DNA of 46,753 nucleotides from Vairimorpha apis BRL 01. Taxonomy: Eukaryota; Microsporidia; Nosematidae. Positions within the stretch are counted from its first letter, which is position 1. Each line of letters opens with the position of its first letter. Position numbers and translations under genes: made by a program. The stretch lies in assembly GCA_000447185.1 (NCBI GenBank), contig KE647286.1:1-46753 (forward strand), given 5' to 3'. Below the pieces are notes generated by a model. The model saw nothing but the letters and a program-made list of their open reading frames with translations. It did not search any database and had not been told where the DNA came from. This document shows positions 113-46,753 of this stretch, in pieces.

Positions 113-1460
113 ATGAAACTTGTAATAACAAATGAAGAAAAAATGATTTTTGACATGATTCTTTCTTGCAAACCTAAAAATGTTACTGCACGTGTAGCAG
201 GTGGCTGGGTACGCGATAAAATTATGGGAATTTCGTCAAATGATATGGATATAGCACTTGAAAATATATCAGGTTATAATTTTGCTTTATTATTGCAAAG
301 TAATTTCTCAAAATCTATATCAAAAGTAAGTATAATACAAACAAATCCAGAAAAATCTAAACATTTAGAAACCGCTGTTTGCAAAATTAAAGACAAAATG
401 GTAGATTTTGTTAATTTAAGAACTGAGATTTATTCCGATTCACGTATACCTATTATAATTCCAAGCAATCCTTATGAAGATGCTTTTAGACGAGATTTAT
501 CTATTAATTCTTTATTTTATAATATAGAGACAAAAGAAGTAGAAGATTTTACAAAAATAGGTTTATATGACATCAGAAATCATATATTGCGTACACCATT
601 AGATCCTTATTTGACTTTTAAAGATGATCATTGAGAATTTTAAGAGTTTTTAGATTTAGAGCAAAATTGAACTTTAATATTCATGATAGTATAATAAAAG
701 CATTAGAAAACGAAGAATTGAAAGATATGTTGTCTAAAAAAGTTTCAAAAGAGAGGATAAGCATCGAATTGATAAAAATATTAAAGTATAAATTAGGTTA
801 TGAGGGTATTTTTTCAATATTACAAAATAAATATGTTTTCCCTATTTTTGGTTTGAATGCAAATTATGAAGAAATAAAAAAATTTTATAAAAAAATTGTT
901 GATAACTATTTAAAAAATGATATTAATTATATTGATGATTTGAAGTGGGTGTATAATCTTTATATTATTTTAATTTCGACTTCAGGAACTTTAATTGAAG
1001 ATGAAAAAAAAAAGTTATTTTTTAATTGTAGACTTGTTAAAGAAAAATTGTTATTTCCTAATAAGATGACTAATTTGGTCAAAAGTATAGAAACTGGTAT
1101 TTATAAAATGCATTATTTAGATTTATTAATTTTAACGGAATATAATGCAAATTTTATAATTTATACATTAGGTGAACATTGGCATATTATTTTAGATTTA
1201 ATTTTTATTAAACTTTCAAATAAGAATATTGAAAGTTTTCTTAAGTTTGTAACTAAAAATAATATTAGTTATCAAAATATAAAACCTGATTTAGATGTAA
1301 GCAATATATCTGAAATTTTAAATATTGAAAAAAATTATATTAAATTTTTTTACAAAGAATCTATTATTTTTAAAGATCATATCCTGATAAAGACGTTTTA
1401 ATGTATTTACAAAATAATAAAAAAGAAATAATTAAAAAACATCAAATTATGGAAATTTAG
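113..1460 (+). CDS. CCA1: CCA-adding tRNA nucleotidyltransferase (frame broken twice)
   Basis: Adds or repairs the 3' CCA end of tRNAs. The first frame (113-634, 173 residues) shows the class II nucleotidyltransferase head: GGWVRD at residues 30-35, the metal-binding pair in DMD at 44-46, RRDLSIN near 126, and the KDD segment that normally runs into LRILRVFRF. The frame hits TGA at 632 exactly there, and the protein continues one frame back from 631 (RILRVFRFRAKLNF, tRNA-binding body) to 1398. A second shift near 1371-1376 restores a plausible C-terminus (YPDKDVLMYLQNNKKEI) ending at 1460. Each shift is repaired by one missing base. Combined length of about 448 residues is normal for the family. 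A 10-A run at 1004-1013 is read through in frame. It is either a real gene with sequence errors or a decayed copy; I favour the former because the function is essential. Confidence 0.88.
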
Positions 1461-1630
1461 AAAATAATTAAACAATAAATATTTTGGTATAAATTTGTAA
1501 AAAATAAATACAATTGATTTTATTTTAATTAAAAGTTTTAAGATTATCACATAAAATATTAAAAATTATTACTAATTTAATTTATTTAACTATTATATCA
1601 TATTTAAACTTTTTCTAAACAAAATTTTTA

Positions 1631-1633
1631 CCC
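1631..1633 (+). promoter_or_regulatory. CCC start-proximal motif of the small unknown gene
   Basis: CCC ends 1 nt before the ATG at 1635. It is the main reason to accept this small reading frame as a gene. Confidence 0.65.
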
Positions 1634-1634
1634 T

Positions 1635-1960
1635 ATGAACAAAAATTCACTTCATATTTTTCCTTTCTTTAGTAAATATAAAGGAGTTATAAAAATTGAA
1701 CATTGTGATCTTACGGATAATGAAATTGAAATTAGAGGATTGCCTCTAATAAAAATTAAGTTAGATAAAGAAGAAACATTGTATTTAAATAACAGAAAAA
1801 TAGAAGAAGATATTTTTTATTGGAAAATAAATATTAATAAAATTGAAAATTCTGGCAACGAAAACAAAAATTTTTTTGATCACAAATTAAAAACAAAAAA
1901 ATAAATGATTTGTTTGAAAAAGGTTTGTATTTAACTAAAAAAGGAATTGGTTTTAATTAA
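1635..1960 (+). CDS. small protein of unknown function
   Basis: I do not recognise this gene. The frame from 1635 gives 89 residues ending at 1904 with a Lys-rich tail that looks like a frame slip. The stop directly follows a 7-A run at 1895-1901, and with one more A the frame continues as INDLFEKGLYLTKKGIGFN to 1960, giving about 108 residues. The body alternates charged and beta-type hydrophobic residues (IEHCDLTDNEIEIRGLPLIK) with no signal peptide, membrane segment or cysteine motif. It could be a small subunit of a larger complex, but nothing in the sequence decides which. The CCC motif before the ATG and its position between two conserved genes support it as real. Confidence 0.55.
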
Positions 1961-2262
1961 AAATATTTATTTATAACAAAATCAACTATTTTTAAGAATA
2001 ATTTTTTAGGTCTTTTTAATAATAAAAAATATATAAGCATGATTAAGTTTTTTACTACATACTTTTTATCATTTGTTTGATATCTCTTAAAATAAATTAA
2101 AATCAAAAACAATTAATATTTTATATTAAATTCAAAATAGTGATTTTTTAATTAAAAAATTTTACTTTTTTATTTAAATATAAAATAAAGCTTAATTACG
2201 CTTATTAATAAACTAATCTTACGTCAATAATTAATCTTTACAATAAATCTTCCTATTTTTAA

Positions 2263-2265
2263 CCC
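2263..2265 (+). promoter_or_regulatory. CCC start-proximal motif of the HDAC gene
   Basis: CCC 2 nt before the ATG at 2268, preceded by about 300 bp of A/T-rich spacer. Confidence 0.7.
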
Positions 2266-2267
2266 TT

Positions 2268-3518
2268 ATGTCGAATAACGTTGTTTATTTTTATGATCAA
2301 GAGATTGGGACTTTTCATTATGCAGCAGGTCATCCGATGAAACCTTTAAGAGTTAGAATGACACATTCTCTTGTGGTTAATTATGAGTTATATAAAAAAA
2401 TGGACATTTTAAAGCCGTATATGGCATCTTATAAAAATTTAACCAATTTTCATTCTGTAGATTATATAAATTTTTTGTCAAGTGTAACTGCTGATAACAT
2501 GGCAGAGATTACCAATGATTTAAATAAATTTAATGTAAAAGAAGATTGTCCAGTATTTTCAGGACTTTATGATTTTTGTAGATTAACTGCTGGTGGTACA
2601 ATGTATGCAGCGCAAAAAATAAATTCTGGTAGATATGATATTGCAATTAATTGGGCGGGAGGACTTCATCACGCTAAAAGGAGTGAAGCATCTGGTTTTT
2701 GTTACATCAATGATATTGTTTTAGGAATTCTAGAGCTTTTAAAATATAATCAACGTGTTTTGTATATAGATATAGATGTTCATCATGGAGGTGGTGTAGA
2801 AGAAGCTTTTTACACTACTGATCGAGTGATGACTGTTTCTTTTCACAAATATGGAGATTACTTTCCCGGTACTGGTATGTTAGATGATGTGGGATTGGGA
2901 AAAGGAAAAAATTATGCTGTAAATGTGCCTCTGAAAAATGGAATTGATGATGAAACGTACATTAATTTATTTAAAACAATAATTGACAAAGTATTAGAGA
3001 AATACAGACCTAATGCGATTGTTCTACAGTGTGGAGCAGATTCTTTATCTGGAGATAAGTTAGGATGTTTTAATTTATCGCATATTGGTCATTCTGAATG
3101 TGTAAAACATATTAAAAGTTTTAACATACCTCTTATTTTATTGGGAGGTGGTGGATATACTATTGGGAATGTTAGTAAAGCATGGGCTTATGATACAGCA
3201 ACAATTTTAGAAGAAGAAATTTCTAATGATTTACCATTTAATGAATTTTATGAATATTTTGGGCCTACATATAAAATTGATATACCTACTAATAATATGA
3301 CTAACAAAAATTCTAAGGAATATATTGACACACTTATTGAACAAATACATGAAAATTTAAGAAATGTATCTCATTGTCCATCTGTAGAACTTATAACACC
3401 ACCTGCTCCTTTTGTTGAAGATGAAAGTGATGAAGAAGAATTACTTGAACGAATGAAAGAAAATAATAAAGAATCTAGTGATTATAAAGATTTTATTGAA
3501 GATTCAAATGATAGGTAA
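2268..3518 (+). CDS. RPD3: class I histone deacetylase (Rpd3/HDAC1 type)
   Basis: Zinc-dependent lysine deacetylase acting on histone tails in nuclear corepressor complexes. The 416-residue frame is intact and aligns with class I HDACs from residue 5 to about 380. Visible active-site parts are the catalytic His pair H134-H135 ([16 protein letters not shown]), the zinc ligands D170, H172 and D258 (the last in [10 protein letters not shown]), and the transition-state Tyr Y297 in [10 protein letters not shown]. One normally fixed residue differs. The HHGDGVEEAF motif reads [10 protein letters not shown], so G175 (codon 2790-2792) replaces the Asp that pairs with the second catalytic His in this family. 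The tail (from about 384) is acidic, with [10 protein letters not shown]. The length is close to the usual core, without the long C-terminal extension of animal enzymes. Activity may be altered; see findings. Confidence 0.97.
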
Positions 3519-3728
3519 TAAATTGTTTTTTTTATTTGAAAAAATAAATCTGTATTTATTTTAATCATCTTTATTTTAAATATTAAATTTTTTAAACAAA
3601 TAAAATATATTTATAAATTTTAGATATTAGATATAAATTTATTATTATTTAATAATTTATTTTCATTTATATTAGATAATGAAAAATAAAAAAAACTATT
3701 TTATTATCTAAAATAATAAATTACGATT

Positions 3729-4794
3729 CTAGTTATAAATAAATTTTAAAATACCTGCAACTCCTCCAAATTCTTTTAATCTTTCTCCCAAAAATGATTA
3801 ACAGGAACAACATATGTTTTTACACGGTAATTTTCAAGATCTTTACAAAAAAGTTCCATTTTTTTCTTTTTTCTATTTCATTTGGTTTATAAATTTCATC
3901 AATAAAAAATATTTTCTCTAAAGCACCAAATTCAAGACTTTCTCTTATTTTATTTTTACCAATTAATAAATCAAGATTGCCTTTATCAAATTCCAAAAAA
4001 AATAACTTAATTCTTTAAGATCATTTATATATTTGAGATTATTAAATCTTCTAGATATGTTTTTATCAGTAAGAATAAAATTTATAATTTGTTTATTTGT
4101 TGCATTTTTAAAATCGTTAGAAGTTTCACTTTTAAAAAGAAATCTTTTAAATTTATTTTTTGATTTTTACTCATTTTTTTATATAATCTATTTTTATCTC
4201 TATTAAATTGTAAAAATCTGTACAAACGTTTGTATTGGAACATATAACAATTAATTCTACTTTATTTACATAATTTATTATTAGATTTAACAGGTTATCA
4301 AATTTTTTTGACTTTATTTCTATTTTGTTTATAATTTTTATATTGTTTTTTCCTACTAAACATATTACACAACATTTTTCATAAAAAATATAAAATAGTA
4401 CATCTTGTGATCCATTAGTGCAATTTTTTATGAGTTGAATGTCATAAAAATTCCAACTATCTTTATAAATGTTAAATTTTTTATCTAATTCTACATCTAA
4501 TGTATGATAACTTCCAATTTTTACATATTCATTTTCTTCACAAACACGACCCTTAGCATATAAAATACCATTCTCTAAATCAACGTTAAAAGACTCAACT
4601 TTTATTTTTAAATATAATCCAATTTTTTGCTGATTTTTACCATCAATTGTCAATTTTCTATGTGTAAAGCATTTAATTTTATCTTCTGGTTTTATTATTT
4701 TGCTTATTTCATATATATCATCTGAACTTTCTGGAATTAAATCTAATGAACCAAAATGTTTTTTTTTGTCAATGTTATCACATAAAATTTTCAT
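3729..4794 (-). CDS. DOM34: Dom34/Pelota ribosome-rescue factor (several frame breaks)
   Basis: Works with Hbs1 to split stalled ribosomes in no-go and non-stop mRNA decay. The first 207 residues from the ATG at 4794 are the Pelota N-terminal Sm-like domain (KKHFGSLDLIPESSDDIYEI, CFTHRKLTIDG, then ENEYVKIGSYHTLDVEL) and the start of the central domain. The frame stops at 4171, but the protein continues in other frames. It shows an RFLFKSETSNDF segment, then IRESLEFGALEKIFFIDE (the FGAVE/LLISDEL core of the third domain), then GERLKEFGGVAGILKF with a stop at 3729. Five breaks are needed, at runs 4174-4180, about 4145-4148, 3995-4002, 3859-3865 and 3790-3794, each repaired by one missing base. 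The total of about 355 residues is close to the usual 380. Such a fragmented copy would be missed by simple gene calling. Confidence 0.88.
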
Positions 4795-4796
4795 AA

Positions 4797-5780: not shown

Positions 5781-5781
5781 A

Positions 5782-5853: not shown

Positions 5854-6144
5854 TCAAACAACATCTTTTCTTATATACAAGGAGTTACAAAATGGATAAA
5901 CTTGATCAATGTCAAAATTCGAACTAATGTCATTTCTAACTGCTTCACTTCCTCCCCAACGTTCTTTAGCTCGCCTATTTTGAAACCAATTACGAATTTT
6001 GCACTTTGATACATTCAATTTCATTGCTAATTCAGTCCTTTGTAATGTTGTAGGTTTAGGATTAATGATAAAATACTTTTTGAGAAAGTTTTTATCTTCA
6101 TGAGTAAGTCTTTCTTGGTGATCTGCATTTTGAAGCATGGTCAT
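5854..6144 (-). CDS. homeodomain transcription factor
   Basis: A 96-residue protein that is little more than one homeodomain, at about residues 6-65. Helix 3 reads KIRNWFQNRRAKERW, with W53, F54, N56 and R58 in the positions equivalent to homeodomain W48, F49, N51 and R53, so base-specific DNA binding should be retained. Helix 1 contains LTHEDKNFLKKYF, and no three-residue TALE insertion is visible. The last 30 residues show no further domain. The reading frame is intact. Unlike most genes here it has no CCC directly before the ATG; two candidate ATGs lie 6 nt apart (6144 and 6138). It borders a 2.5-kb spacer on its 5' side. Target genes cannot be inferred. Confidence 0.93.
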   Translation of the reverse strand: MTMLQNADHQERLTHEDKNFLKKYFIINPKPTTLQRTELAMKLNVSKCKIRNWFQNRRAKERWGGSEAVRNDISSNFDIDQVYPFCNSLYIRKDVV

Positions 6145-8659
6145 CGTATTTGAGGTTCATTTATAATTTTAATTTATAAATTTTTATAAAATTAATTAAT
6201 TAAAAGTAAATTTTTAGATAACTTTACTATCAACTATTTGGTTTAAAAAAATTAATTTTGTTTATTGTTTAAATTTTTATACAATGTAAACTTTTAATAT
6301 TTGCAATAAATTTAAAAATATAATAAAATTTTTGTTTGTAAATCAAATGTCAAATTAATCAATCAAAAAATCCATCAAAAAATCTAAAATAAACTTAATC
6401 TATTAGATAATTTTGATATTACTAATTCTTATATAAATCATAAGTTAATACCAAAAGAATATTTTTTTAGTATTAATTTTAATTAAAATTTTATAAATAA
6501 AAATTCTCATAATATAATTTACTTTTAATTTTATATAATTTTTAATTTTAATATTTACCTAAAAAATTATTTAGTAAAATCATATCAAATCTATAATTTA
6601 TAATATTATATCAAAAATCTCAAAAGATTATAAATTCTTTAATTTATTAAAATAAATATTCAATCTTGTGTATATTAATAAATTTAGTTTTAAGTAAATC
6701 CTAAATATAATTATATTATTATTTTAATTTTAGACTTATAAATATTTTGACTTTTAACATGTATATAATAAAAAATTTTAATAAAAAATTTTAGAGATAT
6801 TTACATTTCAATTAAAATATAATTTTTTAATATTTTTTAACAATTATAATATTTTTTAGTACTATAAAATGTTTTATAAATGTAATTATTAAAGCATAAA
6901 AAAATTAATTAAATTTTATATATTAAATTTTTAAAAATAAAATTTTTATTTAAGTAGTTTTATATTTAAATTCAACAAATAAAATGTTGTATTATATTTT
7001 GTTATAATAAATTCTATTTTTGGATTATTGTTAAAAAAGATATTTTTATTTATTTAATATTTTTGTATTATATTTGATTTAAATTCTTAGTATTTTTTGA
7101 AATATATTTTTTTAATATGTAAAATTTATAACATTTTTTTTAAAGTATATTAAAAGTTTAATTTAAGTTTTTACAATATCATGAAATAAATTGCAAACTT
7201 AAACAAATTAATTTTATATTTAATTATAAAAACATACAATAATTTTTTTTAAATATTTAATCATAAACTAAAAAATATATAATATGTTATTATTTTAAAC
7301 AATTATAGAAATATATTATTGTATTGAATTGACTTATAGTAACAAATATTAATATATATAAAAAGGAAAAATATTCTACAAATAAATATTAATAAAAAAT
7401 ATAAATTTTACATAATTTATAAATTATATATATAAAAAAAACATCTTACTAAAATTTTATAACTTAAAGATTTTATTTTTTTAATTAAATATTTTTAGAA
7501 TTGTTAAGAAAAATTTAAAATGTCTTTGTTTGTTTAATTAATATAAAATAATTTTTAAAATTTGCATTTTATTTACTTATTTTATTGATAATAAAATATT
7601 TTGTATTAATACTTACATAATTAAAAAATTACAGTTTATTTTGCTAATTGAAATATTTTACATTTAAATAGTTATATATAACAATATTGCGTAGTTGATA
7701 AGAAAAAATCATCAAAATTATATTAATCAAGGTTTTTGCTATTTTAATGAAATATAATTTTTAATAAAATTTCTTACACAATATTCATATTTTTTTAATT
7801 ATAAAACTATTACATTTAAAATATTTCTTCATGTTATTTGCTCTAATAATGATTCATTATATGAAAAAATGATACAAAATAAAATTTAAATAATATATCA
7901 ATTTAGTACATACTTTAAAAATTAATTAAAAACACAATTAAATTTTTGTATGTTTAATTAATATTAGTTTGGATTTTAGATTTTAAACAATATTTTAAAA
8001 AAGAGTTATGTGTAAAATGTTCAATTTTAAAATTTTTTATTTAATAACTTTTAATTTGATTTTTTAAGAGATTGTTAAATAATGTCAAACATTTTACATT
8101 TTAATTAAAATAGAAATTATTTACTATTAAAAATTAAGATTACACTTTTAAAAAAATATTTAATGTATATGTTAAAAACAAAAATTTTATTATTTTACAA
8201 AATAAAAATCTTTACAATAATTAATTATCAAAATATTTTAATAACTACAAAATCATGTTTTTAAAATGTTAGAAAATTTTACATTGTCTTTTTATTTTTT
8301 AATTTTAATGTTTAATTTTTATATATAATTTATAAACTATTTTATAAAATTTGTTGTTTTTAAACTATACAAAACAGATAAGTATCAATAAAAACAAAAT
8401 TTTATTGATGAAATAATAAATTAATTAATATTTTGATGTAAACATTATTATATATAATAGATATTAATAATTCTATATATTTAATTTTAAATTAATATAG
8501 AATTTTATAAATATCTCTTTATTTTTTTTTAATATCTTATAATTAAATTTTAATCATTTTTAATATTATGCTATTTTTAGTTTAAAAAAATTAACAAAAT
8601 TTATAAAAAATATGAATATATGTTATTTAATAAAATTAATATTGCATTATAAAAACACT
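6145..8659. other. 2.5-kb AT-rich spacer, no gene found
   Basis: Almost pure A/T with stop codons in all frames at short intervals. I see no tRNA or rRNA signature, no CCC-plus-ATG start, no conserved protein fragment and no clear direct or inverted repeat. It presumably includes the upstream control region of the homeodomain gene and the 3' flank of MYG1. Confidence 0.6.
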
Positions 8660-9537
8660 TTATTCAGAAAAATAAGATTCTCTGCACATTTTAATAGCAC
8701 CTTCTTTAGTTTTGTTAGAACCAATAAAGCCTGTACTATGAACAAATACACCACCATCACATAAAATTTCAAGCTCTTTATCTTTTTTACCTCTCCATTT
8801 TTTATTAAGAGGTTTTTTAAGATCAAAATTATTAGAAGATATATTTATAGCTCTTATTTTATATTCAGATTCATAAGGATACACCATATATAATATATTT
8901 TTACCATAAATTGCTTCAATTTCCAAAATCAAGTTTATATCATAATATTCATTTGAAATTAAAATATAATCATCTAATTCTCGAATTAAATTTTTTAATT
9001 CTCTATATTTTTTATACCAAAAATTAATAACATTTTCAATATATTTAAAAAATCAGTTTCTACAATAAATAGTGCTTTATCAAAACCATTTACATCTTCA
9101 TTATACAACGATATTACATCAGAAATTGTTCTTGGTTTGACATTTCCAAAAACATTAATACCATTATCAATTGCATCTGCACATAAAAAAAATTCTTCAT
9201 ATACTTTATTAACTAATTTATCGTAAAGAGAATCATTTATCAATATGTTATATATTTCAAATAATTTTTCATGAAAATGTTTAAATATTAAACCACAACT
9301 ACTCATTTTAATGTTATATTTATCAGAGAAAGTATCAGAAAATGTATATTGATGATGATCATACCTATGTTTAAGATGATCATATACACCACCTACATCA
9401 TATACAATATCACCACTATTTATGATTGTTTGATCTCTTGTTCTTATTATTGAAGCATCTGGATAAATTTTTTTTAGTATTGCAGTTGCAAGAAGTTCGT
9501 CATAGTGAAATCTTCCATTATGAGTTATTAATTTCAT
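8660..9537 (-). CDS. MYG1: MYG1-family exonuclease/phosphoesterase (one frame break)
   Basis: DHH-like metal-dependent phosphoesterase family; animal and yeast members are 3'-5' RNA exonucleases of nucleus and mitochondria. The N-terminal part (9537-8995) carries THNGRFHYDELLA at residues 5-17, IVYDVGG ending at 50 and the RYDHHQ motif at 58-63, all metal-site segments of the family. The C-terminal part (8932-8660) has KKWRGKKDKELE and FVHSTGFIGSNKTKEGAIKMC, the highly conserved MYG1 tail. The two are joined by adding one base at the T4 run 9033-9036 (plus strand), which restores NVINFWYKKYRELKNLIREL. The total of about 292 residues matches a compact MYG1. The Cys usually found in TFHCDE is Tyr here. 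Confidence 0.92.
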
Positions 9538-11551
9538 AAGGGTTCATTTTAAATTTTAAATCAACATAATCAAAATTTCTTATTATGTTTATATATTATA
9601 TTTTTTTTTAGACTTATAATACAAATTTTTTATAAGATTTATATAAGAATAAATATTACATTTGTTTGTTATTGAATAAAATAAAGTAAAACTCAATAAT
9701 TCAATTATATATTTGTCTACAATTAAAACTAAAATTTAATTTTAATAATAAGCTTAAATATTTATTTATAAATTAAACATATATTTATAAATTAAATTTC
9801 TTATTCTAATTTATATTTAAATTTAAAAATAATTTATACATATTTGTTTAAATATTATTTTTTTTAGAAATAAAAAGATTTAAAAATAATTGTAATTAAT
9901 TCAAACACATTATTCAATTTGATTTATATAATCTAATATTTTTAATATATCGATAGATTTATTTTTTATATTTATTTTTATAACTTTTAATTGCAAATAA
10001 AAGTTAATATTTATGATTAGATATTGAGAGTTATCTATGAAGAGTAATCATTTATATAAAATAACATAAATAAATATTAAATACATTATAAAAACTTACT
10101 AACTACGTCTATTGTTTACAACAATATAAGTTCCATTTCTCTTTAATACTTTGCTAAAATATTATTTAAAATATAGGTTTTATGTTATTTTTAAATAAAT
10201 TAAAATTAAATGTGTTTTAAATTTATTTGAATATTTTGTTTATTTTTTAGAATTTATCTAAAAATTATAAAATTAAAAAGTTTTTATTTTTAACTCTATC
10301 ATTCAAGAAATTAAATATTATTTTATAAATGTAATTAAAACTTTAAGTTAATAAAATTTTTTTAAAATGATTCACATATATAATAATTAATTTATTAAAT
10401 TATGTTATTATATAAGCGTTTAATCAAATAAGAAGGTATTCAAATATAAAATTTGAATAATTTTACATATTTATAATATTCGAATTATATATAAAAATAT
10501 TTTATGTTAAATCAATAATAAAATGAGTTATTAAAAAAAAATTATTTGAATTAAATATTATGTTTTTTTAGTTTTTTTATTATATATAATTTTGTATAAT
10601 AATTGATAGTTTTGTAAAATATTTAAAAATATAATATCTATTTTTTTATAGCATTATTTGATTTAAATACTATTTATTCATGAAAATTTATTGTTGTTTA
10701 TTGTACTTTTACATTAAAATTAAAAATTATTAAAATGTGTATAATAATCAATAAACATAATATTATATCATATGTAAATTTATATAAATGTAGAACAAAA
10801 TATATTATTTATTAGGAAATTTATATAATATACACTAATTAATTATTTGAATAGTACTTTATGCATATAATAGTTATTATAATTTGTTTTTAAAAAAAAT
10901 ATATGACAATTATAAAAAACAGAATATTGTTTATAAACGTCAAAAAATATATTTATATACTAAAATATAATAACTGTTATTTTAATAAAACTAAATTTTA
11001 CACGGGTTGTAGAAATTTTAAATTTTAGAACAAGATTGAAACATTTAATCTTACATTAAAGTATTTTAAAATTATTTATTATGATTTTAAATTTTTTATT
11101 TTGTGCATAAGAAAACAAAAATTAATATTTTCTTTTTTGGTGTATTATTTAAATACACATTAAATAATTAATTTATTTTGTTGCCAATAAAATATATATT
11201 TTATAAAACGTTTAATTTTTTTAAAATTTAAATAAATAACTTTTAAATAAAAAAAATTAAATTAATTGATGATTACATCGTGTTCATTTGTTTTATTTCC
11301 ATTTATTATAACAAGTTTTTATTCTACAAAGAGTAATCTTTTTATACATAAACGATATAATTAAAACATACTTTTTAAACAAAATTTAAAATATTTTAAT
11401 TTTAATTTTAAGTAATGTACAATAAAAATTTGGTCTTTAAATTTTTTTCTATAAAAATACCACAAACGAATTAAAAATCTTTTTTTTTGATACGTTTGAA
11501 CTTACCAATTAAATGAAACATATTTTATAAGAAAAAATTAAAATATCAAAT
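9538..11551. other. 2.0-kb AT-rich spacer, no gene found
   Basis: Mostly A/T with frequent stops in every frame. Short stretches near 10,030-10,150 and 11,270-11,350 are slightly richer in G and C and share a loose AAGAGTAATC-type core, but neither encodes a recognisable protein or RNA. Confidence 0.5.
9540..9542 (-). promoter_or_regulatory. CCC start-proximal motif of MYG1
   Basis: CCC in the sense strand, 2 nt before the ATG at 9537. Confidence 0.7.
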
Positions 11552-12286
11552 ATGGAAACAGCTGAAAACAGCGAACACAATGAATCGCCAAATTACAGAC
11601 TATCAGTACTTTCATGCATACGATTCTTAATAGTTGTTGAAATTTGTTTCAAAATTATAAAAATAATTGTTACATCGATAATATTATATATAACAAGAAA
11701 CGAAAAATGCAAAGTACCTTTGAAACTATTTAACTTTGTATATCTTTTAATAACTTTAACAACAACGCTAACATATTTATCAAAAAATAGAAATTTTTTC
11801 AGAATTCTTAGAATTAATGAATTTAGAGAGAATCCAGATTTGATGGTTTTTAATAACTTTATAGAAGCATTCCTATTGTTCTGGTACTTACTTGGATTTC
11901 ATTGGTTACAAATTTGTCCAGAGTGTAAAAACTTAAATCCACTTTTGTATTGGACAACAGTACTTTGGGTTAGCATAGGTGTCAGTATGTTTATTGCTCC
12001 TTTATTAGCGATATTTTTATTATTAGTATTTGTAACATTACTAAGACCAAATTTAAAAGTTATTAATTATAAAGGACCTGCTGATATTCCTAATGATACA
12101 TATCACTGTACAATTTGTTTTGAACCATATGCATACGAAAGTGTAATTAAATTTTTACCATGTGATCATCATTTTCATTCTGAATGTGTAGATGAATGGC
12201 TTGCTTTAAGGGAATCTTGTCCTTTATGTAAAAAAAATATTAATATTTTATACGAATTGGTAGATACACCCGTTGTAGATTTATAG
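11552..12286 (+). CDS. multi-pass membrane RING-H2 protein (probable E3 ubiquitin ligase), copy 1
   Basis: A 244-residue protein with about four hydrophobic segments (roughly residues 20-48, 58-78, 103-121 and 132-165) followed by a C-terminal RING-H2 finger. The zinc ligands are C186, C189, C204, H206, H209, C212, C223 and C226, the C3H2C3 spacing of ligases that recruit ubiquitin-conjugating enzymes at membranes. A further CPEC pair (122-125) sits on a loop between membrane segments. The reading frame is intact. No CCC precedes the ATG. A protein of the same size and topology lies at 17,043-17,765, and a Ubc7-type E2 lies at 21.8 kb. An ER role such as membrane-protein degradation is likely, but this is inference; the exact family is not identified. 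Confidence 0.85.
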   Translation: METAENSEHNESPNYRLSVLSCIRFLIVVEICFKIIKIIVTSIILYITRNEKCKVPLKLFNFVYLLITLTTTLTYLSKNRNFFRILRINEFRENPDLMVFNNFIEAFLLFWYLLGFHWLQICPECKNLNPLLYWTTVLWVSIGVSMFIAPLLAIFLLLVFVTLLRPNLKVINYKGPADIPNDTYHCTICFEPYAYESVIKFLPCDHHFHSECVDEWLALRESCPLCKKNINILYELVDTPVVDL

Positions 12287-19141: not shown

Positions 19142-20348
19142 CTATTTAACTTTTTCATTAATCTTTTCATAAATCAATCTATAAACACTTTTACAAGGTG
19201 AAACTTTACGTATAAATTTTATTTTGCCTCCTGTAATACCAGTACGATTTTTTACTTCATCAACAGGATCATTTTTAGAAAAAAATAACAAAAAATTAAA
19301 CCTTTATCTATATATTGTATATAATCAAGACTATGTTCAGGTAAATTTAATATATAACAATCACCAATAACACACTTTAAAAATTCTTTTGCATCAATAT
19401 TATATATATTTTTACAATGTAATTTATTGAGATCAATATTAATTTTTAAACATTTAATAGCATCTTTATTTAAGTCATTACAATAAACTTGATACCCTTT
19501 TTTAATTAAAGGTATAACAAGTGGACCTACACCACAAAACACATCAATTATGACTTTATTTTTAGGAAGTTCATTAATCAAATATTTTCTTTCTTCCTGT
19601 AATTTTGAACTCCAATAAACATTTTTTAGATCAATATAAAATTTACATTCATTTTCTTCATGTACTGTTGATAAGTTTTTTATATTTATAATTGCATCTA
19701 CATAATATATTTTAATAAAAACATCTAATAAATTTTTATCAAAATCTTTATAATATATTTTATAATCAGTTTCTATAATATCATTGTTAAAATGATATTT
19801 AAGTTCCTTATTACAATCAAAAAAATCTAATATTTTATTTTTATATATATATTCATATTTATTTTTTTCATAATTTTCTCCTTTTAAAATATTATCAACA
19901 TCCATACCTCCAATTATTTCAAAATTATAGTTTCTATATGCATTATTGATTTCATTAATTTTATTAATAACTAAATATTTGGTTTTATCGTATACAATTT
20001 TTCCTATAATGAATTTATATTTAAGGAATTCTTGCTTTAAATTAAAATGTACAACATTTCCAATCACTTCATATGAAGAAATATTTATATTACACAATGA
20101 TTTAATAATAGTAGAATACACAAAATAATTGTAATTTAAAGTAATGGTTGCTAATTTATCACCATTTTCAGCGAGAAATATTCTATCATTTATTTTTTTG
20201 TTATTAAAATCAATATTAAAAGTTTTATATTCTTTATTTATTGATATAACAGATGGTATCTTGGGTATCTTTAAAATTTTTAAATTATTAGATTTTTCTA
20301 GAAAAAATTTTACATTTATATTTTTTTTATTAAATTTTTCAAATTCAT
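19142..20348 (-). CDS. TRM5: tRNA (guanine37-N1)-methyltransferase Trm5 (two frame breaks)
   Basis: Methylates G37 next to the anticodon using S-adenosylmethionine, which keeps the reading frame during translation. The start is set by the ATG at 20348 with CCC 3 nt upstream. About 9 codons later the frame breaks at the T8 run 20321-20328 (plus strand), and adding one base opens a long frame to about 19275. That frame holds the Rossmann motif VIDVFCGVGPLVIPLIKKG, the ribose-binding acidic CNDLN segment and YILNLPEHSLDYI, the NLP catalytic motif of Trm5. A second break at the A7 run 19279-19285 is again repaired by one base. It leads to KNDPVDEVKNRTG and the conserved C-terminal IRKVSPCKSVYRLIYEKI, with the stop at 19142. 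The total of about 402 residues is near the fungal length. No mitochondrial targeting extension is visible. Confidence 0.92.
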
Positions 20349-21072
20349 TCAGGGTTTAAATAAAAGTTTAATATTTTGTTAAAAAAATTAAACTTATAAA
20401 ATTTAAAATCATTTGATTTAGCAATATTTTTCGTCTATATTATTTAATTTAGAACAAAAAAAATTATTTTTTATACTGAATTTCATTAATAAAAATAATA
20501 GCTTTTTCTATCTATATGTATATAAAAAAATTTATTAAACATAAATTCTAATATAGTTTTATTGTAAAAATTTTATATGCAACTAAAAATTTTCTAATAA
20601 ACATGATTATTTAAATTATAAAATTTTTGTTTTGATATAGTTTTAATAAAATTATAATATTTAAATCTTAACTTTCTTGCAATTAAATCAAACATTATAA
20701 TTTTGAAAAAAAAAAATTTTTAAATAAAAAATTCTTTTTTATATGTATTAAAATTATAAATAATATTTTATATTAATTAAAAACATCCATATTTAAATAT
20801 AAGCAAATTAAAATAATTTATAAACTTTACAAATTTTAAATTAAGAAAGATTTAATTCTTTTTTTATACAAAAATCTATAATTATATGATATTAATGAAA
20901 TAAAAACTTATAATATAAGAATATTACAAATTATATTTATATATGATAAATATAAACATAATTTATTTTATTTTTAAATTGAAATATAAAAACTAAAGTA
21001 TAATTAAAATAAAATTATATAAAAATAAAACATAATAAATTATTTATGACGAGATAATGATAAATTATTTTA
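20349..21072. other. 0.7-kb AT-rich spacer, no gene found
   Basis: A/T sequence between the TRM5 start and the 3' end of the uS17 gene. Nothing is recognised. Confidence 0.6.
20352..20354 (-). promoter_or_regulatory. CCC start-proximal motif of TRM5
   Basis: CCC in the sense strand, 3 nt before the ATG at 20348. It identifies the start although the frame breaks shortly after. Confidence 0.65.
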
Positions 21073-32180: not shown

Positions 32181-32185
32181 AAAAA

Positions 32186-32403: not shown

Positions 32404-32406
32404 CCC
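32404..32406 (+). promoter_or_regulatory. CCC start-proximal motif of the transporter-like gene
   Basis: CCC 7 nt before the ATG at 32414. Confidence 0.65.
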
Positions 32407-32413
32407 TTTCTTT

Positions 32414-34303: not shown

Positions 34304-34306
34304 TGA

Positions 34307-34309
34307 GGG
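34307..34309 (-). promoter_or_regulatory. CCC start-proximal motif of histone H3
   Basis: CCC in the sense strand, 3 nt before the ATG at 34303. Confidence 0.7.
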
Positions 34310-34603
34310 CTTGATATTTTAAAAAATTAATAATAAATTGGAGGGAAAATGTGTTTCAAAAATGATTTTAATGAATTTTTAAAATTTGCAAAAAACAAAT
34401 TTCTTTATGTATAAAAACTTTAAATAAATGAAGTTTATCATAATAAATCTTCAAGTTTTTATTTTTATATAGTAAGTTCTGACATTTAAAATAAATAAAA
34501 TCAAAGTTTATTGAATCAGTTTCAAAAATCATATTTATAATTTTATGTATGTGTTTTCTTTATTAGATTTCAATTTTTTTTAAATATTTATTTTTTTGTT
34601 TTT

Positions 34604-34606
34604 CCC
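34604..34606 (+). promoter_or_regulatory. CCC start-proximal motif of ERO1
   Basis: CCC 2 nt before the ATG at 34609. Confidence 0.65.
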
Positions 34607-34608
34607 TT

Positions 34609-35286: not shown

Positions 35287-36738
35287 AAAATTATATATTT
35301 TTTTATTTAACATAAATATTTTGTACCATTAAATTATTTTTAAATTGTAAGAAAAATTTTTAATGTTTGTTTTAAATGAATTTATGTATCTGTTTAAAAC
35401 CATACATTGTGGTTTGATTTAAAATTTTTTAAAATGAAAAAAATTTTGCTTTCTATGTTTTGTTTCATGTATAAGCAAAATTTTTTTATTATCAAATTAT
35501 GATTGTTTTTGCATTATTAGTTTAAATATGTTATTTTTGATAAAAAAAATTAATCTTAATCAATAATTTTTAGAATTTGCGAATCTATTTTTGCAGATAT
35601 TTTTTAATAACATGAATAAAGTTATTATGAAAAAAAAATTAATTAAGGTTTAAAAATTATTTTTATATTTAAAATTGTAAAAAAATTGTCATTTTTTATT
35701 AAACTAAAAAGTACTTAAATGAAATTTTGTTATAAATTGTAAATAAAATATAATAACGTAGTGTTTTATTTTATATACGAGTTAACAATGAAAAATATAT
35801 TTTTATAAAACATGATGTTTCAACGATTAAAAAATTAACATTTTCTTATTTTTAAAAATAATAAAATATGTGCATAGATTATTGAATATATTCTTAATGA
35901 TGCATATATTTATAAATATATGTTTAAAATTATAAATATGAAATTATAAATATTTATTTGTGAACTAAAAATAAAATTTTATTTTTAATAATGAAAAAGT
36001 CTAATTATATTGTTATAATTAAAAAATATAAATAACAGAATATATATTTTATAAATATTTATATTTAATTCATAAAAAAAAGTATTAAATATTATATTAA
36101 ATTAATTTTTATAATGTTATATTAAATTTTATAAGATGTTGAAAATAATTAATATTGCAACATATTTAAATTTAAAATTATATAATGTAAAAAAAATGAA
36201 AATTTAGATAATATTTTTGGCATTTAAAAATTTAAAATATAAAAAAATTACAATTTTACCTTTTTTTAGTATAATTTATTATTATTCTCAAAAAAAATAC
36301 TTTTTATATAAATACATAATTTAGTTAATTAATTTTACATAAATAATTTTAATGTAAACATAAAATTTGTTAATTTTTTTATTTAAATTTATTTTTTTAA
36401 AAAATTCATATAAATAAAAGTTTGTATAACAAAAGTAAAAAATAAAAATTGAATTTTTTTTATATTTTTAAAAAAATTAAATTATAAACTATATTATTAA
36501 CGTTATATTTGTTTTTTAGCCTTTTATAAACAGATTGATTATATTTAAATTTTTTTCTTACATTAAAAAGTAAATGTTTTAAAATAAATATATTATATAA
36601 TGCTATTTGATACTTTTTAAAACTTAAATTTTAATCTAACGAAAGTGATGTTTAAGATTTAAGTATTTGCCAAAAAAAATTTAAATAAAAAAGTTTATTA
36701 AGTTATATTTTAATGTTTTTTACCCAATTTTTTATAAA
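35287..36738. other. 1.45-kb AT-rich spacer, no gene found
   Basis: A/T sequence with stops in all frames. The only start-type motif is the CCC before the KH gene. Confidence 0.6.
36723..36725 (+). promoter_or_regulatory. CCC motif upstream of the KH-domain gene
   Basis: CCC 13 nt before the ATG at 36739, the longest spacing in the window and so a weaker case. Confidence 0.45.
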
Positions 36739-40660: not shown

Positions 40661-42046
40661 TCTAAAAAATTGGTTTTTGTTTAAAATTAAATATTATTTT
40701 TAAATTTTTAAAAAAGATATTCTTAAAATATTTTATTAAAAAAATATAACTACCACAGATGTGTTTTTACATAGTTGATCATGATAACAAAAAAATAATT
40801 TTTATTTTTTAAATAGTAAAATATTAAAACAATATATAAATTTTTTTGTATTTATGTTTTATAAAAATCTTAAATATATAGTTAAATGTTCAATGATTTT
40901 GTTGTAAATAATTTATTTTTAAATAAGTTAACTGTATTTAAAAAATAAAAAAATGTTATTTGTATTTTGAAGACATATTTAAATTTTAGATAAAAAAATT
41001 ATTTTCTAAAAGAATTTATTATTATAAATATTTTTAAAAAAATAAATAATTATATTTTATTTATAACGAGTATAAAAATATAAATTTAATTTAATTTTAC
41101 AAAAAAATATAAATACTACAAACTGTATAAATAATTTTATTGTATTGCCATTTTATAAAAAATTTAAAAACATAAAAACCAATCAACACTGTATTTTAAA
41201 ATATAAACAATAATTAACTATAATTTTATTGCAGTAAAAATATGTACGTTAATTTAATTTAATGGACAGAAAAAAATTTTATATAATTTTTTCAATATAA
41301 ACAAACAAAAAATTCTTAAATATAAAAAAATTCAATATTATAATGTTTATTACAAAATTATTATACTTATTTAATTTATATTTTCAAAAACTTTATTATA
41401 TATATTATATTTTTGTTTATTACAAATTTTAAACAATATAGCTTAAAAAAATAATTAAATTAAATGTTTAATAAAATAATTGTTCATGTTATAAAAATCA
41501 AAATAATGTTACAAGTTTCTATTGATTTAAAAATTTAAATTATGTTTTATTCTTAAATTCGATTATGGTTTTAAAAAAATATGTATTTAACATAATATAT
41601 ATGACAATAATTAAAATAAATAAAAATTTTAATTTTTGTTCATATAAATATATATAATCATTTTTTACTATCAAATTTTTAAATTTTTAGATTAATAATT
41701 TTTTTTAATTTTAAAAAAAATTTTGAGTGAAATATATTATTAATAATAAGAAAAATTATAAATAATAAAATAGTTTAAAATAATTATAATAACTGTTTTT
41801 TATGTTCGAACGTCATAATTTTAATACTGATACATGTCATTTAATAATTTTTTTTGATATTTCATTATAACTCAATTTATTAAAAAAAATTGTAATTTTT
41901 TAAGGTTATTAGAAATATATATAAAGGAAAATAAAAAATAATAATTATTAATTTTTACAACCGACTTTATGATTAATTAACAAATTATTTGATTGTTTAC
42001 AAATTTTATCGAAAATTTAAATTTTTATTTTTATTTTTATTTTTTA

Positions 42047-42049
42047 CCC
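42047..42049 (+). promoter_or_regulatory. CCC start-proximal motif of the small coiled-coil gene
   Basis: CCC 2 nt before the ATG at 42052. It places the start here instead of at the upstream in-frame GTG/TTG-type codons. Confidence 0.6.
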
Positions 42050-42051
42050 AA

Positions 42052-42321
42052 ATGTTAAAAAGTGATATAATACAAAATATTAATGACAATCTTGAAAAAA
42101 TTTTAGAAGACTATATTGAAATTTTTGATATGCTAAAAAATCCAAACAATGATATAGTTTCATTATTTTTTGTCAAAAGAAGTTGTTTAAATATCATTAA
42201 TAATGTTCAAGAAATTTATTATAATATTTTAAATTTAAATAAAAAATATCATCAAGATAATTCTCAAAATAAAATTAAAAATAATGATAAAATTATATCA
42301 TTGTTAAATGAAGATTTTTAA
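42052..42321 (+). CDS. small helical protein, possibly Mediator subunit Med22
   Basis: An 89-residue protein (MLKSDIIQNINDNLEKILED...LNEDF) that is almost entirely helical with heptad-like spacing of Ile/Leu, so probably a coiled-coil subunit of a complex. The first half (NDNLEKILEDYIEIFDML), followed by a hydrophilic gap and a second helix (CLNIINNVQEIYYNILNLNK), resembles Med22 of the Mediator head. The resemblance is weak and several small helical proteins would fit. No membrane segment remains once the start is placed after the CCC motif. It lies 167 bp upstream of the B56 gene on the same strand. The identity is a guess; the gene itself is fairly likely. Confidence 0.45.
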   Translation: MLKSDIIQNINDNLEKILEDYIEIFDMLKNPNNDIVSLFFVKRSCLNIINNVQEIYYNILNLNKKYHQDNSQNKIKNNDKIISLLNEDF

Positions 42322-42488
42322 TAAAATACATTTTTGTAATTTGAAATTTTTTTATTTTCTTGTTTATTTTACACCTGTCATTACGTTTATTTTAATTAAA
42401 CTCAATGCATATTTTTTATATTGATATAAAATTTTATTTATTTATATATAAAACGAATTTAATAAAAAAAATACAATTGATCCTATTT

Positions 42489-44071
42489 ATGAAACCTAAA
42501 AACGATGAAGAGAAACAGGAGAAAAAGAAAAAATTAAACTTAAATTTTATTAAAGAAAAGAATAAAAATCGGAGATTGTTTGAAAATAAAAATTTTAATA
42601 CAAAAGAAAATAATACAATTGATAATATATTTAATCTAAATATTAATGAGCCCAATTTTAAGGTAGTCAATAAGTATAAATCAAATTCTGAGGTACATAT
42701 CAATTCTTTTTTAATTGAAAATATTCATTCAAAAGATACTTTAACATTATACGAATTATTATGCCAATTAAAAAAGACAAAGATTACAGAAAATCTTTTT
42801 ATAATCATAGTTAATAAATGCAAAGATGTATTATTTCGAGAAATTAAAAATTCAAATCCAACTGGTGTACAGTTTCATGTTGGTGACGATGTAAATGTTA
42901 AAAATTCTGTTTCGTCAAATATTAATATATTTGCAAAAATTTTAAATTATGTGACAAGTGTTATGTATGATAATAATATAATTTTAAAAGTATTTTGCGA
43001 TAGTGATATCTTAAATTTAATTAATCTTCTTAAATCTGAAGACGAAAACGAGAGAGCACAAATTGCAAATGTTTTATTAAACATTTTTAAAAATTTTAAA
43101 ATTACAATTAGAAATGTTATTGAAAATGAATTATGTTTATTTTATGAAGGTTTACGAACACATATAGGGATGGAAGAATTGTTAGAAGTTGTTTCTTGTA
43201 TAATAGAAGATATGGTTAGGATAAAGCCAATTAAAAGAGAATATGTGAAATTAGAAAATAAAAAATTTCCAATATCTAATGATCAAAGTATTATATCAAA
43301 CAACAACTTTAAAGATAAAAATGAAGAAAAACTAAAGGAAAAAAATAATAGTTTTTTCTATGAATATGTTTTGAGGTTTTTAACTGTTAATAACTTAGAG
43401 TATTATACTAATATCAACCAAATAATTTTTAGTTATTGACAAAAAAAATTTAAATGTTTCTAAAATTACTCTTAAATATTTATCCGTTTTATTTCAAAAC
43501 ACTCAATTTTCAAACAAATCAGTACTAGTACAGATATATATGTCAATATATATTTTATGGTCAAGAAAAATATCTTATAATGAAATAATTAACGATGTTT
43601 GTATGTTCTTAAATAATGCATTTGAATCTGAACATTTTAAACTTATTGATCAAACAGTTAAAATTATAGATTTACATGTTATAAAAAAATTCTTTAAAGA
43701 AAATATTACAGAAATTCTTCCAAAAATATTTGATAACTTGTACATGATAAGTAAAAAATATTGGAGACACAAGGGGAAATTAGATATTTTGAAATTTATG
43801 TTTTTAATTATTAATCTCAATCATCATTGCTTTGAACAATGTTTAATAAATTACAATAAAAAAAGCATTTAAAAAAAAGTGAAATTTTTGAAGATTTGAA
43901 AAAAAACTTTTAAAAGTTATAGAATCTTATAAAATAGAACAAAGTAAAGAATTAATCTTTACAAAAAGACGAAAGTCTTTAAATAATTCAAAACAAAAAA
44001 AATATAAATTAAATTGTAAATTATGTTTAATTGTATTTGTTTATTTTTTAAAAATAAAATATTTTAATTAA
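42489..44071 (+). CDS. RTS1: PP2A regulatory subunit, B56 family (three frame breaks)
   Basis: B56/Rts1 subunits direct PP2A to substrates at centromeres and in stress signalling. A Lys-rich N-terminus leads into a HEAT-like superhelix. LLKSEDENERAQIANVLLNI, then RNVIENELCLFYEGLRTHIG and MEELLEVVSCIIEDM correspond to the strongly conserved B56 block around FDSEDPRERD and GIAELLEILGSII. The frame stops at 43437. One added base at the T5 run 43426-43430 leads into VQIYMSIYILWSRKIS, ILPKIFDNLYMISKKYW and FEQCLINYNKK, matching the B56 C-terminal helices. Further one-base breaks at the A7 run 43858-43864 and the A8 run 43899-43906 extend a Lys/Glu-rich tail whose end, about 44,000-44,071, is uncertain. 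The start is also uncertain. I chose the ATG at 42489, although no CCC precedes it. Confidence 0.83.
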
Positions 44072-44395
44072 ATAAGTGTAATTAATTTAAGTCATTGAAA
44101 AATATATTTTAATTTATGTATTAATTATTTTTTTAAAGTTTTATTAAAAATAAGGATTAAGAATCAGATTGATTAAAATATTATCAAAAATTAAAAATCT
44201 ATTATATTTAATTATTCACATGAATTTATAAATATAAATAAATTATTATAAAAAAAGTATTGAATATTAGTTTTATCTGAACAAATTCCTATTTCATACA
44301 ATTTATATTTCTAAATATTTAATAAATCAATTTATATATAAATACATTTTTTTACTTTTAAAATAAACAACATTTACAATATATAATTAAACTAT
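44072..44395. other. 320-bp AT-rich spacer between convergent genes
   Basis: A/T sequence between the 3' ends of the B56 and RPN1 genes; nothing is recognised. Confidence 0.55.
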
Positions 44396-46753
44396 TTAAT
44401 TATCTTTTAATAACACAACATCTTCAAATATAGTAGTATAACTACTTTCGTCAATTTCAGCACGTTCTGTACAATTTAAAATTACAGGAGTAGTGTGTGT
44501 CTGCATAGAAGAAATAGTTTTAGGATCTCCAACAATACCAACTGTACTTACAGGTAAACCAATTCTAACATGTACCTTTTTTTCTGTATACATATATTTA
44601 GGTACAAATGATTGATTTAATAAATAAAAAAGATAAGTATGGCCTTTAAAAAGAGGACTTGAAAATGTATCAAACATAAGAAAAGTTGTTGCAAACAAAC
44701 CAATAAAATTTTTTGGAACAATACATGATTTATCATAAAGATTATAAGAAATAGAAGTTAGCCCTTTTCCAAGAGATAATAATCCATTTGAAATTCTTAA
44801 CATAGTGATGGCTTTAAAATCTTTATAAAAATGAGTATACTGCGAATCAATAATCTTTTGAAGTCTACCACTTACAGTTCCTGCTCCAATAACACCAAGA
44901 GCAAACATTGAGGAAATTGATACATTAATATCACCACAATTTATATTTCTTTCTAAAAAATCAATTATAGTAGATTGAGGCGAAGAAGGATACATCAAAG
45001 CATAGCATAGAGGTAAAACGGATTTGAGATGTGTTGATTCTAGAATCAATGAAGAAGCACATATTCTAGAAATCATTTGCGTAGCCAATTCATCTCCTAT
45101 ACCTATTAAAGAACAACTTAATAGTGCAATTGATTCAAGTAAAGCGTCCGTTTCTCCACAAAAGGCTTCAGACAATAAATGTTCAACTACTTGAGGATCT
45201 CCTGTTTTTAAAAACTGAAATCCTTTAACTAAAATTGCACCATGTTTTGCGTAATTCGTCTCCATAGTTTCCAAACAACACTCAACATCTGGTCTTCTAT
45301 AAAATAGTAATGCAATACCAAGCATTAGCATTTTAAAAAAATGAGAATCAACATATTCTTCTTTTTCAATATACATTTGTAAAAATATCGAAATCAATTC
45401 ATCATCAGCTGATCCGACAAATAAGCTTCCTAAGGTAAATGCTGCGAAAAAAGATATTTCCTGGTTTTCAGAATATAATAAAGGTATTAATAATTTTTTT
45501 AAATCTTCGTCGTTAGCATTACAATATATTGTTTGAATACCCATAAGTGTTGGAATAACATGTAACGGATCGTTGGATTGTAAATTATTTGTCAAAAGTG
45601 ACAGAATTGTACTATTTTCATCATAAATTTTTGAACTAGAAAGAGCTAATGCTAATAATGCTCCTGTTTTTTTATTGAAATTTCACCAAAAATATGTTCT
45701 TGCAAAATCTCTAAAACTTTACTTGGATTCCAAAATTCAATACATCCTACACTAGCGATTATTGTAATTAATTCGGGAATATTAGAATTTAAAACTGTTT
45801 GGTAATCAAATCCATCATTTACTGATTCTTCAGCAGGAAAAAAAATAGTATCATGACTGTAACCGAGATTTATAAAACCATTGCAAACTGTTATAGCATT
45901 AAACGAATTTTGTTGAATATTTTTTGCGTCTTTTTCATATTTTAATTTATTTAACATACTTGTTTTGGTTTTGTCAGAATTTAATTCATATATATTAATC
46001 AATTGAGTATAAATATCTTTAATATGATTATTTGATAAAATAACTTTTTCGTCTAATATCTTAGTATCGTAAAAAATATTAAGCCTTGCTAAAACATACA
46101 ACAATTGGCGTTTAACCATTTTATCATCAATTTTTTTAACGAATTCAATTGCTTCATCAATAAAATTTTGCTCAATTAAATTTATTATGTATCTCGTATA
46201 ATCTTTTGTTTTTAGATAAATTTTTACTAATATATCATTCAAATCATAAAAAACACTCATTTCTCCCAAATACTTTATTATTCGCTTGTAATTATGTATA
46301 TCAACATAATTAACAATATTTTCAATATCTTTAATTTCTAATAAAAAATCAATGGCATCAAATTCTAAATTATTCTGAAAAAGAAAATCTTTACATTCTT
46401 GAACAACTTCATATGTTTCATCAAAATCAATTTTATTTTTTTTAATTTTGAATCAACGATACATCCAATTAATTTTTTTACATATAAATGTCCCCATTCT
46501 TTAAGGGAAATAACATTACCTAAAATCCTGTATCTTAAAATATCTTCATCGTCGCCTATAATACTTATAGCACTAATAATATCGAAAATTTTTTTAGACT
46601 GTTCATTTTCTAACTTTGAACACAAATCCAATAAATCATATTTTCTTTCTGATAAAACTTGAAAACTTAATGTACTAATTGATCCAGAATGCGATGATTT
46701 TACTAAATCAACCAACATATTAGTAGCATTATTAATTATATTATTATCTTTTT
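44396..46753 (-). CDS. RPN1: 26S proteasome base subunit Rpn1, 5' end cut by the window (two frame breaks)
   Basis: Largest non-ATPase subunit of the 19S base and docking site for ubiquitin receptors and Ubp6. The reading frame is open to the window edge, so the N-terminus is missing. Three frames in succession match Rpn1. The first has ILRYRILGN and KEWGHLYVKKLIG. The second has YIINLIEQNFIDEAIEFVKK and the segment with CNGFINLGYSHDTIFFPAEE. The third is the toroid of repeats (FFAAFTLGSLFVGSADDELI, SMFALGVIGAGTVSGRLQ), then RIGLPVSTVGIVGDPKTISS with MQTHTTPVILN and the terminal FEDVVLLKDN. Breaks at the T8 run 46436-46443 and the T7 run 45667-45673 (plus strand) are each repaired by one added base. 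About 786 residues are present of an expected 850-990. Confidence 0.95.

What the first reader, a model, noticed from the sequence alone, without database searches (positions are those of the whole stretch)
113..46753. About 23 frame breaks in 14 genes, nearly all repaired by exactly one missing A or T
Breaks were found by reading conserved protein on across stops: CCA1 (2), small unknown gene (1), DOM34 (5), NAXD (1), MYG1 (1), TRM5 (2), SEC59 (1), Rab11 (1), VPS13 (1), transporter (1), KH (1), TFIIS (1), B56 (3), RPN1 (2). All except possibly SEC59 go in the same direction, one base lost, and about 16 lie in runs of 7-9 identical A or T. Essential genes (RPN1, TRM5, CCA1, DOM34) cannot all be dead. 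Genes without breaks (HDAC, H3, PP2A, uS17, Ubc7) also read through some runs, and A10 at 1004-1013 and A8 at 28096-28103 are in frame, so run length alone does not decide. The simplest reading is systematic homopolymer undercalling. The exciting alternative is polymerase slippage at poly-A restoring frames, as reported for AT-rich insect endosymbiont bacteria.
Basis: partly seen in the sequence, partly recalled or inferred. Interest (0 to 1): 0.75.

Follow-up and report, generated by a model that had tools for sequence, protein, structure and literature searches.

The report
Sequencing miscounts mimicking broken genes
In this piece of the genome of Nosema apis, a honey-bee parasite, genes look broken most likely because the sequencing machine miscounted runs of identical letters: three of the broken genes are whole in other public sequence data, and the same miscounts likely produced false introns in the public gene list.

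Summary
The breaks are in the deposited sequence but almost certainly not in the organism. The window is a 46,753-base contig of Vairimorpha (Nosema) apis BRL 01, sequenced by 454 Titanium at about 15x. I located 16 of the 23 listed breaks: 15 lack a base, one has an extra base. The other 7 were neither confirmed nor refuted.

Three genes with 10 breaks (DOM34, B56, CCA1) are whole in public proteins of the same species; 1,324 of 1,329 aligned codons agree. Two contigs of the same assembly overlap the window's ends with different break sets: CCA1 has 2 breaks in the window and 0 in the overlapping contig; HDAC is open in the window but shifted there. A/T runs are in excess up to length 8, collapse above 9 and never exceed 11 in 246,753 bases. 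Decoded breaks occur in 17 of 20 sampled stretches. Poly-A slippage is not needed.

A consequence: the public DOM34 model spans its breaks with three GT..AG introns that delete real coding sequence. The introns reported in 22% of N. apis genes are therefore doubtful.

The parts
113..1457 (+). CCA1 (CCA-adding enzyme), 2 breaks, one base short each
   Evidence: 446 of 447 codons identical to P0009 (449 aa, whole); overlapping contig C63 has the gene unbroken, 448 of 449 identical; PF01743 in the first piece
2265..3518 (+). HDAC, open in the window; frame shifted in the overlapping contig C63
   Evidence: PF00850; C63 carries two more bases within the stretch matching 3038-3066 and decodes as two separate segments
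3732..4794 (-). DOM34/pelota, 5 breaks, one base short each; the public 267-aa model crosses it with three false introns
   Evidence: 351 of 351 codons identical to P0001 (356 aa, whole) apart from the breaks; exact spliced match of P0003
5020..5801 (-). NAXD (NAD(P)H-hydrate dehydratase), 1 break, one base short
   Evidence: decoder; both pieces match PF01256 (the second at 25.0 bits, just under the 27-bit cut-off)
8663..9543 (-). MYG1, 1 break, one base short
   Evidence: decoder; the two pieces match PF03690 positions 1-184 and 181-317
19148..20355 (-). TRM5, 1 break located (reader: 2), one base short
   Evidence: decoder (at penalty 9; not called at penalty 12); PF02475
38310..38827 (-). 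TFIIS, 1 break, one base short
   Evidence: decoder; PF07500
42405..44005 (+). B56 (PP2A regulatory subunit), 3 breaks: two one base short, one with an extra base
   Evidence: 527 of 531 codons identical to P0007 (534 aa, whole); C96 copy has 3 breaks, 2 shared with the window
44399..46748 (-). RPN1 (runs off the contig end), 2 breaks, one base short each
   Evidence: decoder; C96 copy has 5 (3 lost, 2 gained), one at the matching position; PF17781 and PF18051
1..3538 (.). overlap with the end of contig C63 of the same assembly (reverse orientation)
   Evidence: 99% identity; 12 gap positions and 12 substitutions
41955..46753 (.). overlap with the end of contig C96 of the same assembly (reverse orientation)
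   Evidence: 99.6% identity; 14 gap positions and 5 substitutions

Best explanation
The frame breaks are most likely base-calling errors in the 454 draft assembly of Vairimorpha (Nosema) apis BRL 01, a genome of about 19% G+C full of A/T runs. A 454 flow reads a whole run as one light signal that is judged less reliably as the run grows, so runs of about 8 or more would often be called one short, and at about 15x depth some short runs would be miscalled in either direction (mechanism: platform knowledge, inferred). A frame breaks wherever a miscalled run lies in a gene, however essential the gene. A eukaryotic gene finder then likely hops between frames with false GT..AG introns. Shown: the breaks, whole same-species copies of three genes, disagreement between overlapping contigs, the run-length ceiling, and three false introns in one gene model. 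Inferred: that 454 chemistry is the cause, and that many other reported N. apis introns arose the same way.
For: 454 Titanium run, Celera assembly, 15x, no mention of Illumina or homopolymers in the term search of PMC3726280. Whole same-species proteins: P0001 (14 contigs, longest 35,605 bases), P0007 (6 contigs, longest 12,633), P0009 (1 contig, 11,131), with 1,324 of 1,329 aligned codons identical. In the same assembly CCA1 is unbroken in C63 and shares one residue difference with the window, so it is the same strain's gene. Break sets differ between overlapping contigs: CCA1 2 vs 0, HDAC open vs shifted, RPN1 2 vs 5 with 1 shared, B56 3 vs 3 with 2 shared. Break rate 8 of 28 at A/T runs of 7-8 vs 5 of 1,274 at 2-6. 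Run spectrum in 246,753 bases: excess growing to length 7-8, then 14 vs 51 expected at 10, 2 vs 23.5 at 11, 0 vs 19.2 at 12-15. Breaks in 17 of 20 sampled stretches, 25 lost to 10 gained.
Against: Half of the 10 adjudicated window breaks touch only runs of 2-5, and only 9 of 26 gap positions between overlapping contigs lie at runs of 7 or more, so long-run undercalling is not the whole story. No run of 9 or more is broken (0 of 3), and the run of 10 in CCA1 is in frame and equal in both contigs. Two B56 breaks and one RPN1 break recur in both contigs. The 17 substitutions in the overlaps leave room for some allelic difference. The simple run model also misfits short lengths, and no genome of like composition from another platform served as control. 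Contig length is my only ground for taking the whole copies as genomic DNA.
Confidence: 0.96

Rival explanations
1. RNA polymerase slippage at poly-A/T runs adds a base to part of the transcripts and restores frames that are truly broken in the DNA, as in AT-rich insect endosymbionts.
For: A/T runs of 7-8 carry most of the excess; the precedent is real: 12-50% corrected transcripts at long poly-A runs in endosymbionts (PMC5009743 passage); some breaks recur in two contigs.
Against: Whole frames on contigs far longer than an mRNA; CCA1 whole in an overlapping contig of the same assembly; 5 of 10 breaks touch only runs of 2-5, where slippage is not expected; an RNA process would not cap runs in noncoding DNA.
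Confidence: 0.01
2. The genes are real pseudogenes, or one decayed allele of a polyploid parasite.
For: Overlapping contigs differ by 17 substitutions in about 8.3 kb, so two haplotypes are possible.
Against: DOM34 has five one-base losses and 351 of 351 other codons identical to the whole copy: decay would leave substitutions. Essential genes are hit in 17 of 20 sampled stretches (genes there not identified). No allele is consistently the broken one: CCA1 is broken in the window, HDAC in C63.
Confidence: 0.02
3. Ribosomes shift by -1 at A-rich slippery sites (programmed or corrective frameshifting).
For: A one-base loss at a run of A is the geometry a -1 shift would correct.
Against: The frame is continuous in same-species copies, so nothing needs recoding. 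Five shifts in one gene, breaks outside runs and an extra-base break do not fit.
Confidence: 0.005

Closest known systems
454 pyrosequencing homopolymer miscalls
   Same: Indels concentrated at runs, mostly losses, a ceiling on run length; a pyrosequencing test reports 95.8, 87.4 and 72.1% correct calls at runs of 4, 5 and 6, with both over- and undercalls (PMC5822529, abstract and passages).
   Different: Half of the adjudicated breaks touch only short runs; raw reads were not seen.
Frame breaks in the 454 draft of the sister species N. ceranae
   Same: AT-rich, homopolymer runs called error-prone, 58 cases of ORFs joined by assuming a single-base assembly error (PMC2685015 passages).
   Different: There the authors marked the sites with ambiguity letters; in N. 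apis the DOM34 model was given introns instead.
Transcriptional slippage in aphid and ant endosymbionts
   Same: AT-rich intracellular organism with frames broken at poly-A runs (PMC5009743 passages).
   Different: There the DNA is short; here same-species copies and a contig of the same assembly are whole.

Membership tests
454 homopolymer base-calling error | Sequence made on a 454 platform | tested here: met
   454 Titanium stated in PMC3726280 (passages)
454 homopolymer base-calling error | Break rate rises steeply with run length | tested here: met
   8 of 28 at 7-8 vs 5 of 1,274 at 2-6; 0 of 3 at 9 or more
454 homopolymer base-calling error | Breaks absent from independent sequence of the same species | tested here: met
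   10 of 10 breaks in the three genes compared are absent from P0001, P0007, P0009; the other genes were not compared
454 homopolymer base-calling error | Run-length ceiling also in noncoding DNA | tested here: met
   (window noncoding counts are small); no control genome
454 homopolymer base-calling error | Reads at the site show a spread of run lengths | not testable with these tools
   raw reads not held
Transcriptional slippage rescue | DNA truly short at the run | tested here: not met
   whole frames on long contigs and, for CCA1, in C63
Transcriptional slippage rescue | Break lies in a long A/T run | tested here: not met
   5 of 10 breaks touch only runs of 2-5
Transcriptional slippage rescue | Mixed run lengths in RNA | not testable with these tools
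   no RNA reads held
Pseudogene | Decay by substitutions as well as indels | tested here: not met
   DOM34: 351 of 351 codons identical beside five breaks
Nosema spliceosomal intron (for the three introns of the public DOM34 model) | GTAAGT donor and TTAG acceptor, as in five ribosomal-protein introns of Nosema sp. YNPr (PMC5012567 passage) | tested here: not met
   0 of 3 match donor or acceptor; the removed stretches are coding in P0001

The most novel reading that the evidence does not exclude
Most of the introns reported in 612 of 2,771 Nosema apis genes, and the substantial secondary intron gain later inferred for N. apis, are gene-finder bridges over 454 frame breaks; N. apis would then be about as intron-poor as its relatives.
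Probability: 0.78. Interest if true: 0.45.

Novelty: not a real feature. Interest (0 to 1): 0.25.

Why it matters
It removes a candidate case of polymerase slippage in a eukaryote. It also warns that the public N. apis proteome likely holds more proteins like the DOM34 model, which keeps only 242 of 356 residues in matching blocks of 8 or more. The report of introns in 22% of genes (PMC3726280) and the intron gain inferred for N. apis (PMC8476143, whose authors call for further analysis but also say a preliminary look supports some of the gains) need rechecking against accurate sequence. Counts of lost or species-specific genes in this bee parasite may be affected too (inference).

Tried and rejected
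A first genome-wide test by pairing long neighbouring ORFs was too strict: 4 junctions in the window (all lost) and 14 in the sample (9 lost, 5 gained); I replaced it by the decoder. Lower frameshift penalties: at 12, with cheaper gene ends, 7 breaks in the window and the TRM5 one not called; at 9, 13 breaks, including three of the DOM34 ones and a spurious antisense pair opposite RPN1. None of the 7 unconfirmed breaks appeared. tRNA and Rfam scans were empty; a plasmid search with RPN1 found nothing. The overlap search with window 28,001-36,000 gave, besides itself, only partial matches of 65-81% identity. No second DOM34 locus was found in the assembly. Paper searches listed no paper that I recognised as linking N. 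apis introns to 454 errors; I read passages of seven papers, so this covers little more than listings of one library. The four A/T runs of 7 in the five intact genes are no contradiction: at a 29% rate all four are right with probability 0.26.

Considered and rejected: slippage, pseudogenes or decayed alleles, ribosomal frameshifting (see rivals).

Full report
What the window is. A search with the first DOM34 piece returned a 267-aa 'protein pelota [Vairimorpha apis BRL 01]' on a contig of 46,753 bases, the length of the window, and a 356-aa protein, P0001, 100% identical over the aligned part and present on 14 contigs, the longest 35,605 bases. The species belongs to Microsporidia, Nosematidae. 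The assembly held here has 5,960,447 bases in 223 contigs. The genome paper (PMC3726280; [quoted passage not shown] It reports 612 of 2,771 genes as interrupted by introns 'in random places'. [quoted passage not shown]

Are the breaks there? Yes, for the 16 of 23 that I could locate. Frame-tolerant alignment of whole same-species proteins to the window gives DOM34 5 breaks with 351 of 351 other codons identical, B56 3 breaks with 527 of 531, and CCA1 2 breaks with 446 of 447. A decoder that uses codon usage and stop codons (trained on 15 ORFs of this window) finds 8 breaks in the window, 7 lost and 1 gained. Two of them are in CCA1 and B56; the other six are in NAXD, MYG1, TRM5, TFIIS and RPN1 (2). 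Fifteen of the 16 lack a base; one B56 break has one too many, and the overlapping contig lacks that base. The remaining seven (small unknown gene, second TRM5 break, SEC59, Rab11, VPS13, transporter, KH) were neither confirmed nor refuted.

Where do they sit? Over the three genes in the window plus two copies in overlapping contigs there are 13 breaks (two B56 breaks counted twice). Assigned to the longest run touching each break zone, 8 fall at A/T runs of 7-8 (28 such runs), 5 at runs of 2-6 (1,274), 0 at the 3 runs of 9 or more. In the window alone 5 of 10 are at runs of 7-8. The enrichment is far beyond chance, but half of the window's adjudicated breaks are not at long runs, and the run of 10 in CCA1 is in frame and equal in both contigs.

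Internal control. The window's ends overlap the ends of two other contigs of the same assembly: 1-3538 with C63 and 41,955-46,753 with C96. The overlaps differ at 26 gap positions (window shorter at 18, longer at 8; 3 at G or C; 9 at runs of 7 or more in the longer copy) and by 17 substitutions. CCA1 is unbroken in C63, with 448 of 449 codons as in P0009 and the same single residue difference that the window has. HDAC, open in the window, is shifted in C63. B56 has three breaks in each copy, two shared. RPN1 has two in the window and five in C96, one at the matching position. Breaks thus belong to a contig's consensus rather than to the gene, and the shared ones suggest that part of the error is systematic. 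Contig ends may be less accurate than the middle, and some differences may be allelic.

Genome-wide. In 20 stretches of 10 kb from 20 of the 223 contigs (16 at contig starts, 4 around histone-fold matches) the decoder breaks in 63,621 decoded coding bases, in 17 of 20 stretches: 25 lost, 10 gained (p = 0.017). On synthetic genes it detects 220 of 300 losses and 217 of 300 gains, never in the wrong direction, with no call in 300 unbroken genes and none in 300 kb of synthetic noncoding DNA. In the sample plus the window (246,753 bases) A/T runs exceed a simple repeat model by a growing margin up to length 7 (742 vs 523) and still at 8 (314 vs 241), then fall short: 84 vs 111 at 9, 14 vs 51 at 10, 2 vs 23.5 at 11, 0 vs 19.2 at 12-15. 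The noncoding part of the window shows the same shape with small counts. This is what a saturating detector gives. The model also misfits short runs, and no genome of like composition from another platform was at hand as a control.

Mechanism. The cause is most likely 454 base calling, in which a run is one flow and one light signal. A pyrosequencing test reports 95.8, 87.4 and 72.1% correct calls at runs of 4, 5 and 6, with both over- and undercalls (PMC5822529, abstract and passages). The 454 draft of the sister species reports error-prone homopolymers and 58 cases of ORFs joined by assuming a single-base error (PMC2685015, passages). Slippage as in aphid and ant endosymbionts (PMC5009743, passages) needs DNA that is truly short; the same-species copies and C63 say that it is not.

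A consequence not in the finding. The public 267-aa DOM34 protein is reproduced exactly from the window by three GT..AG introns of 95, 124 and 43 nt. Two of the three contain a break; none has a length divisible by three, so each changes frame; none has the GTAAGT/TTAG signals given for Nosema ribosomal-protein introns (signals from a passage of PMC5012567). They cut out residues that P0001 encodes; 242 of 356 residues remain in blocks of 8 or more. GT..AG pairs 20-150 nt apart span 916 of 1,000 random positions of the window, so a gene finder can nearly always find such a bridge. It is therefore likely that many of the 612 intron-interrupted genes are of this kind, and the secondary intron gain inferred for N. 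apis (PMC8476143, passages) becomes doubtful. Against this: I tested one gene model only; [quoted passage not shown] and PMC5012567 names two N. apis ribosomal-protein genes (L19, S4) with introns shared with relatives, so some N. apis introns are real.

Verdict. As biology this is not a real feature; as a correction to public data it is useful.

Noticed in passing
window 3732-4794; public protein P0003: The public DOM34/pelota protein of N. apis is a chimera made by three false introns; it keeps 242 of 356 residues in blocks of 8 or more.
   Followed up: yes
window 1-3538 and 41955-46753: Both ends of the contig overlap the ends of other contigs (C63, C96) by 3.5 and 4.8 kb at 99% or more, yet the assembly left them unjoined.
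   Followed up: partly
window 5857-6156, minus strand: A short ORF matches the homeodomain family (PF00046, E = 5e-16).
   Followed up: no
window 11531-12286 (+) and 17043-17789 (-): Two ORFs look like membrane proteins ending in a RING-type Cys/His pattern (pattern recalled; read from the translations, not tested).
   Followed up: no
P0002, P0008: Public data hold a close relative 83% (DOM34) and 74% (B56) identical to N. apis on short contigs without a species name; perhaps an undescribed Vairimorpha.
   Followed up: no
L005 (G000:C90:22659-22985): A histone-fold match elsewhere in the assembly has one in-frame TAA, possibly the same kind of error.
   Followed up: no
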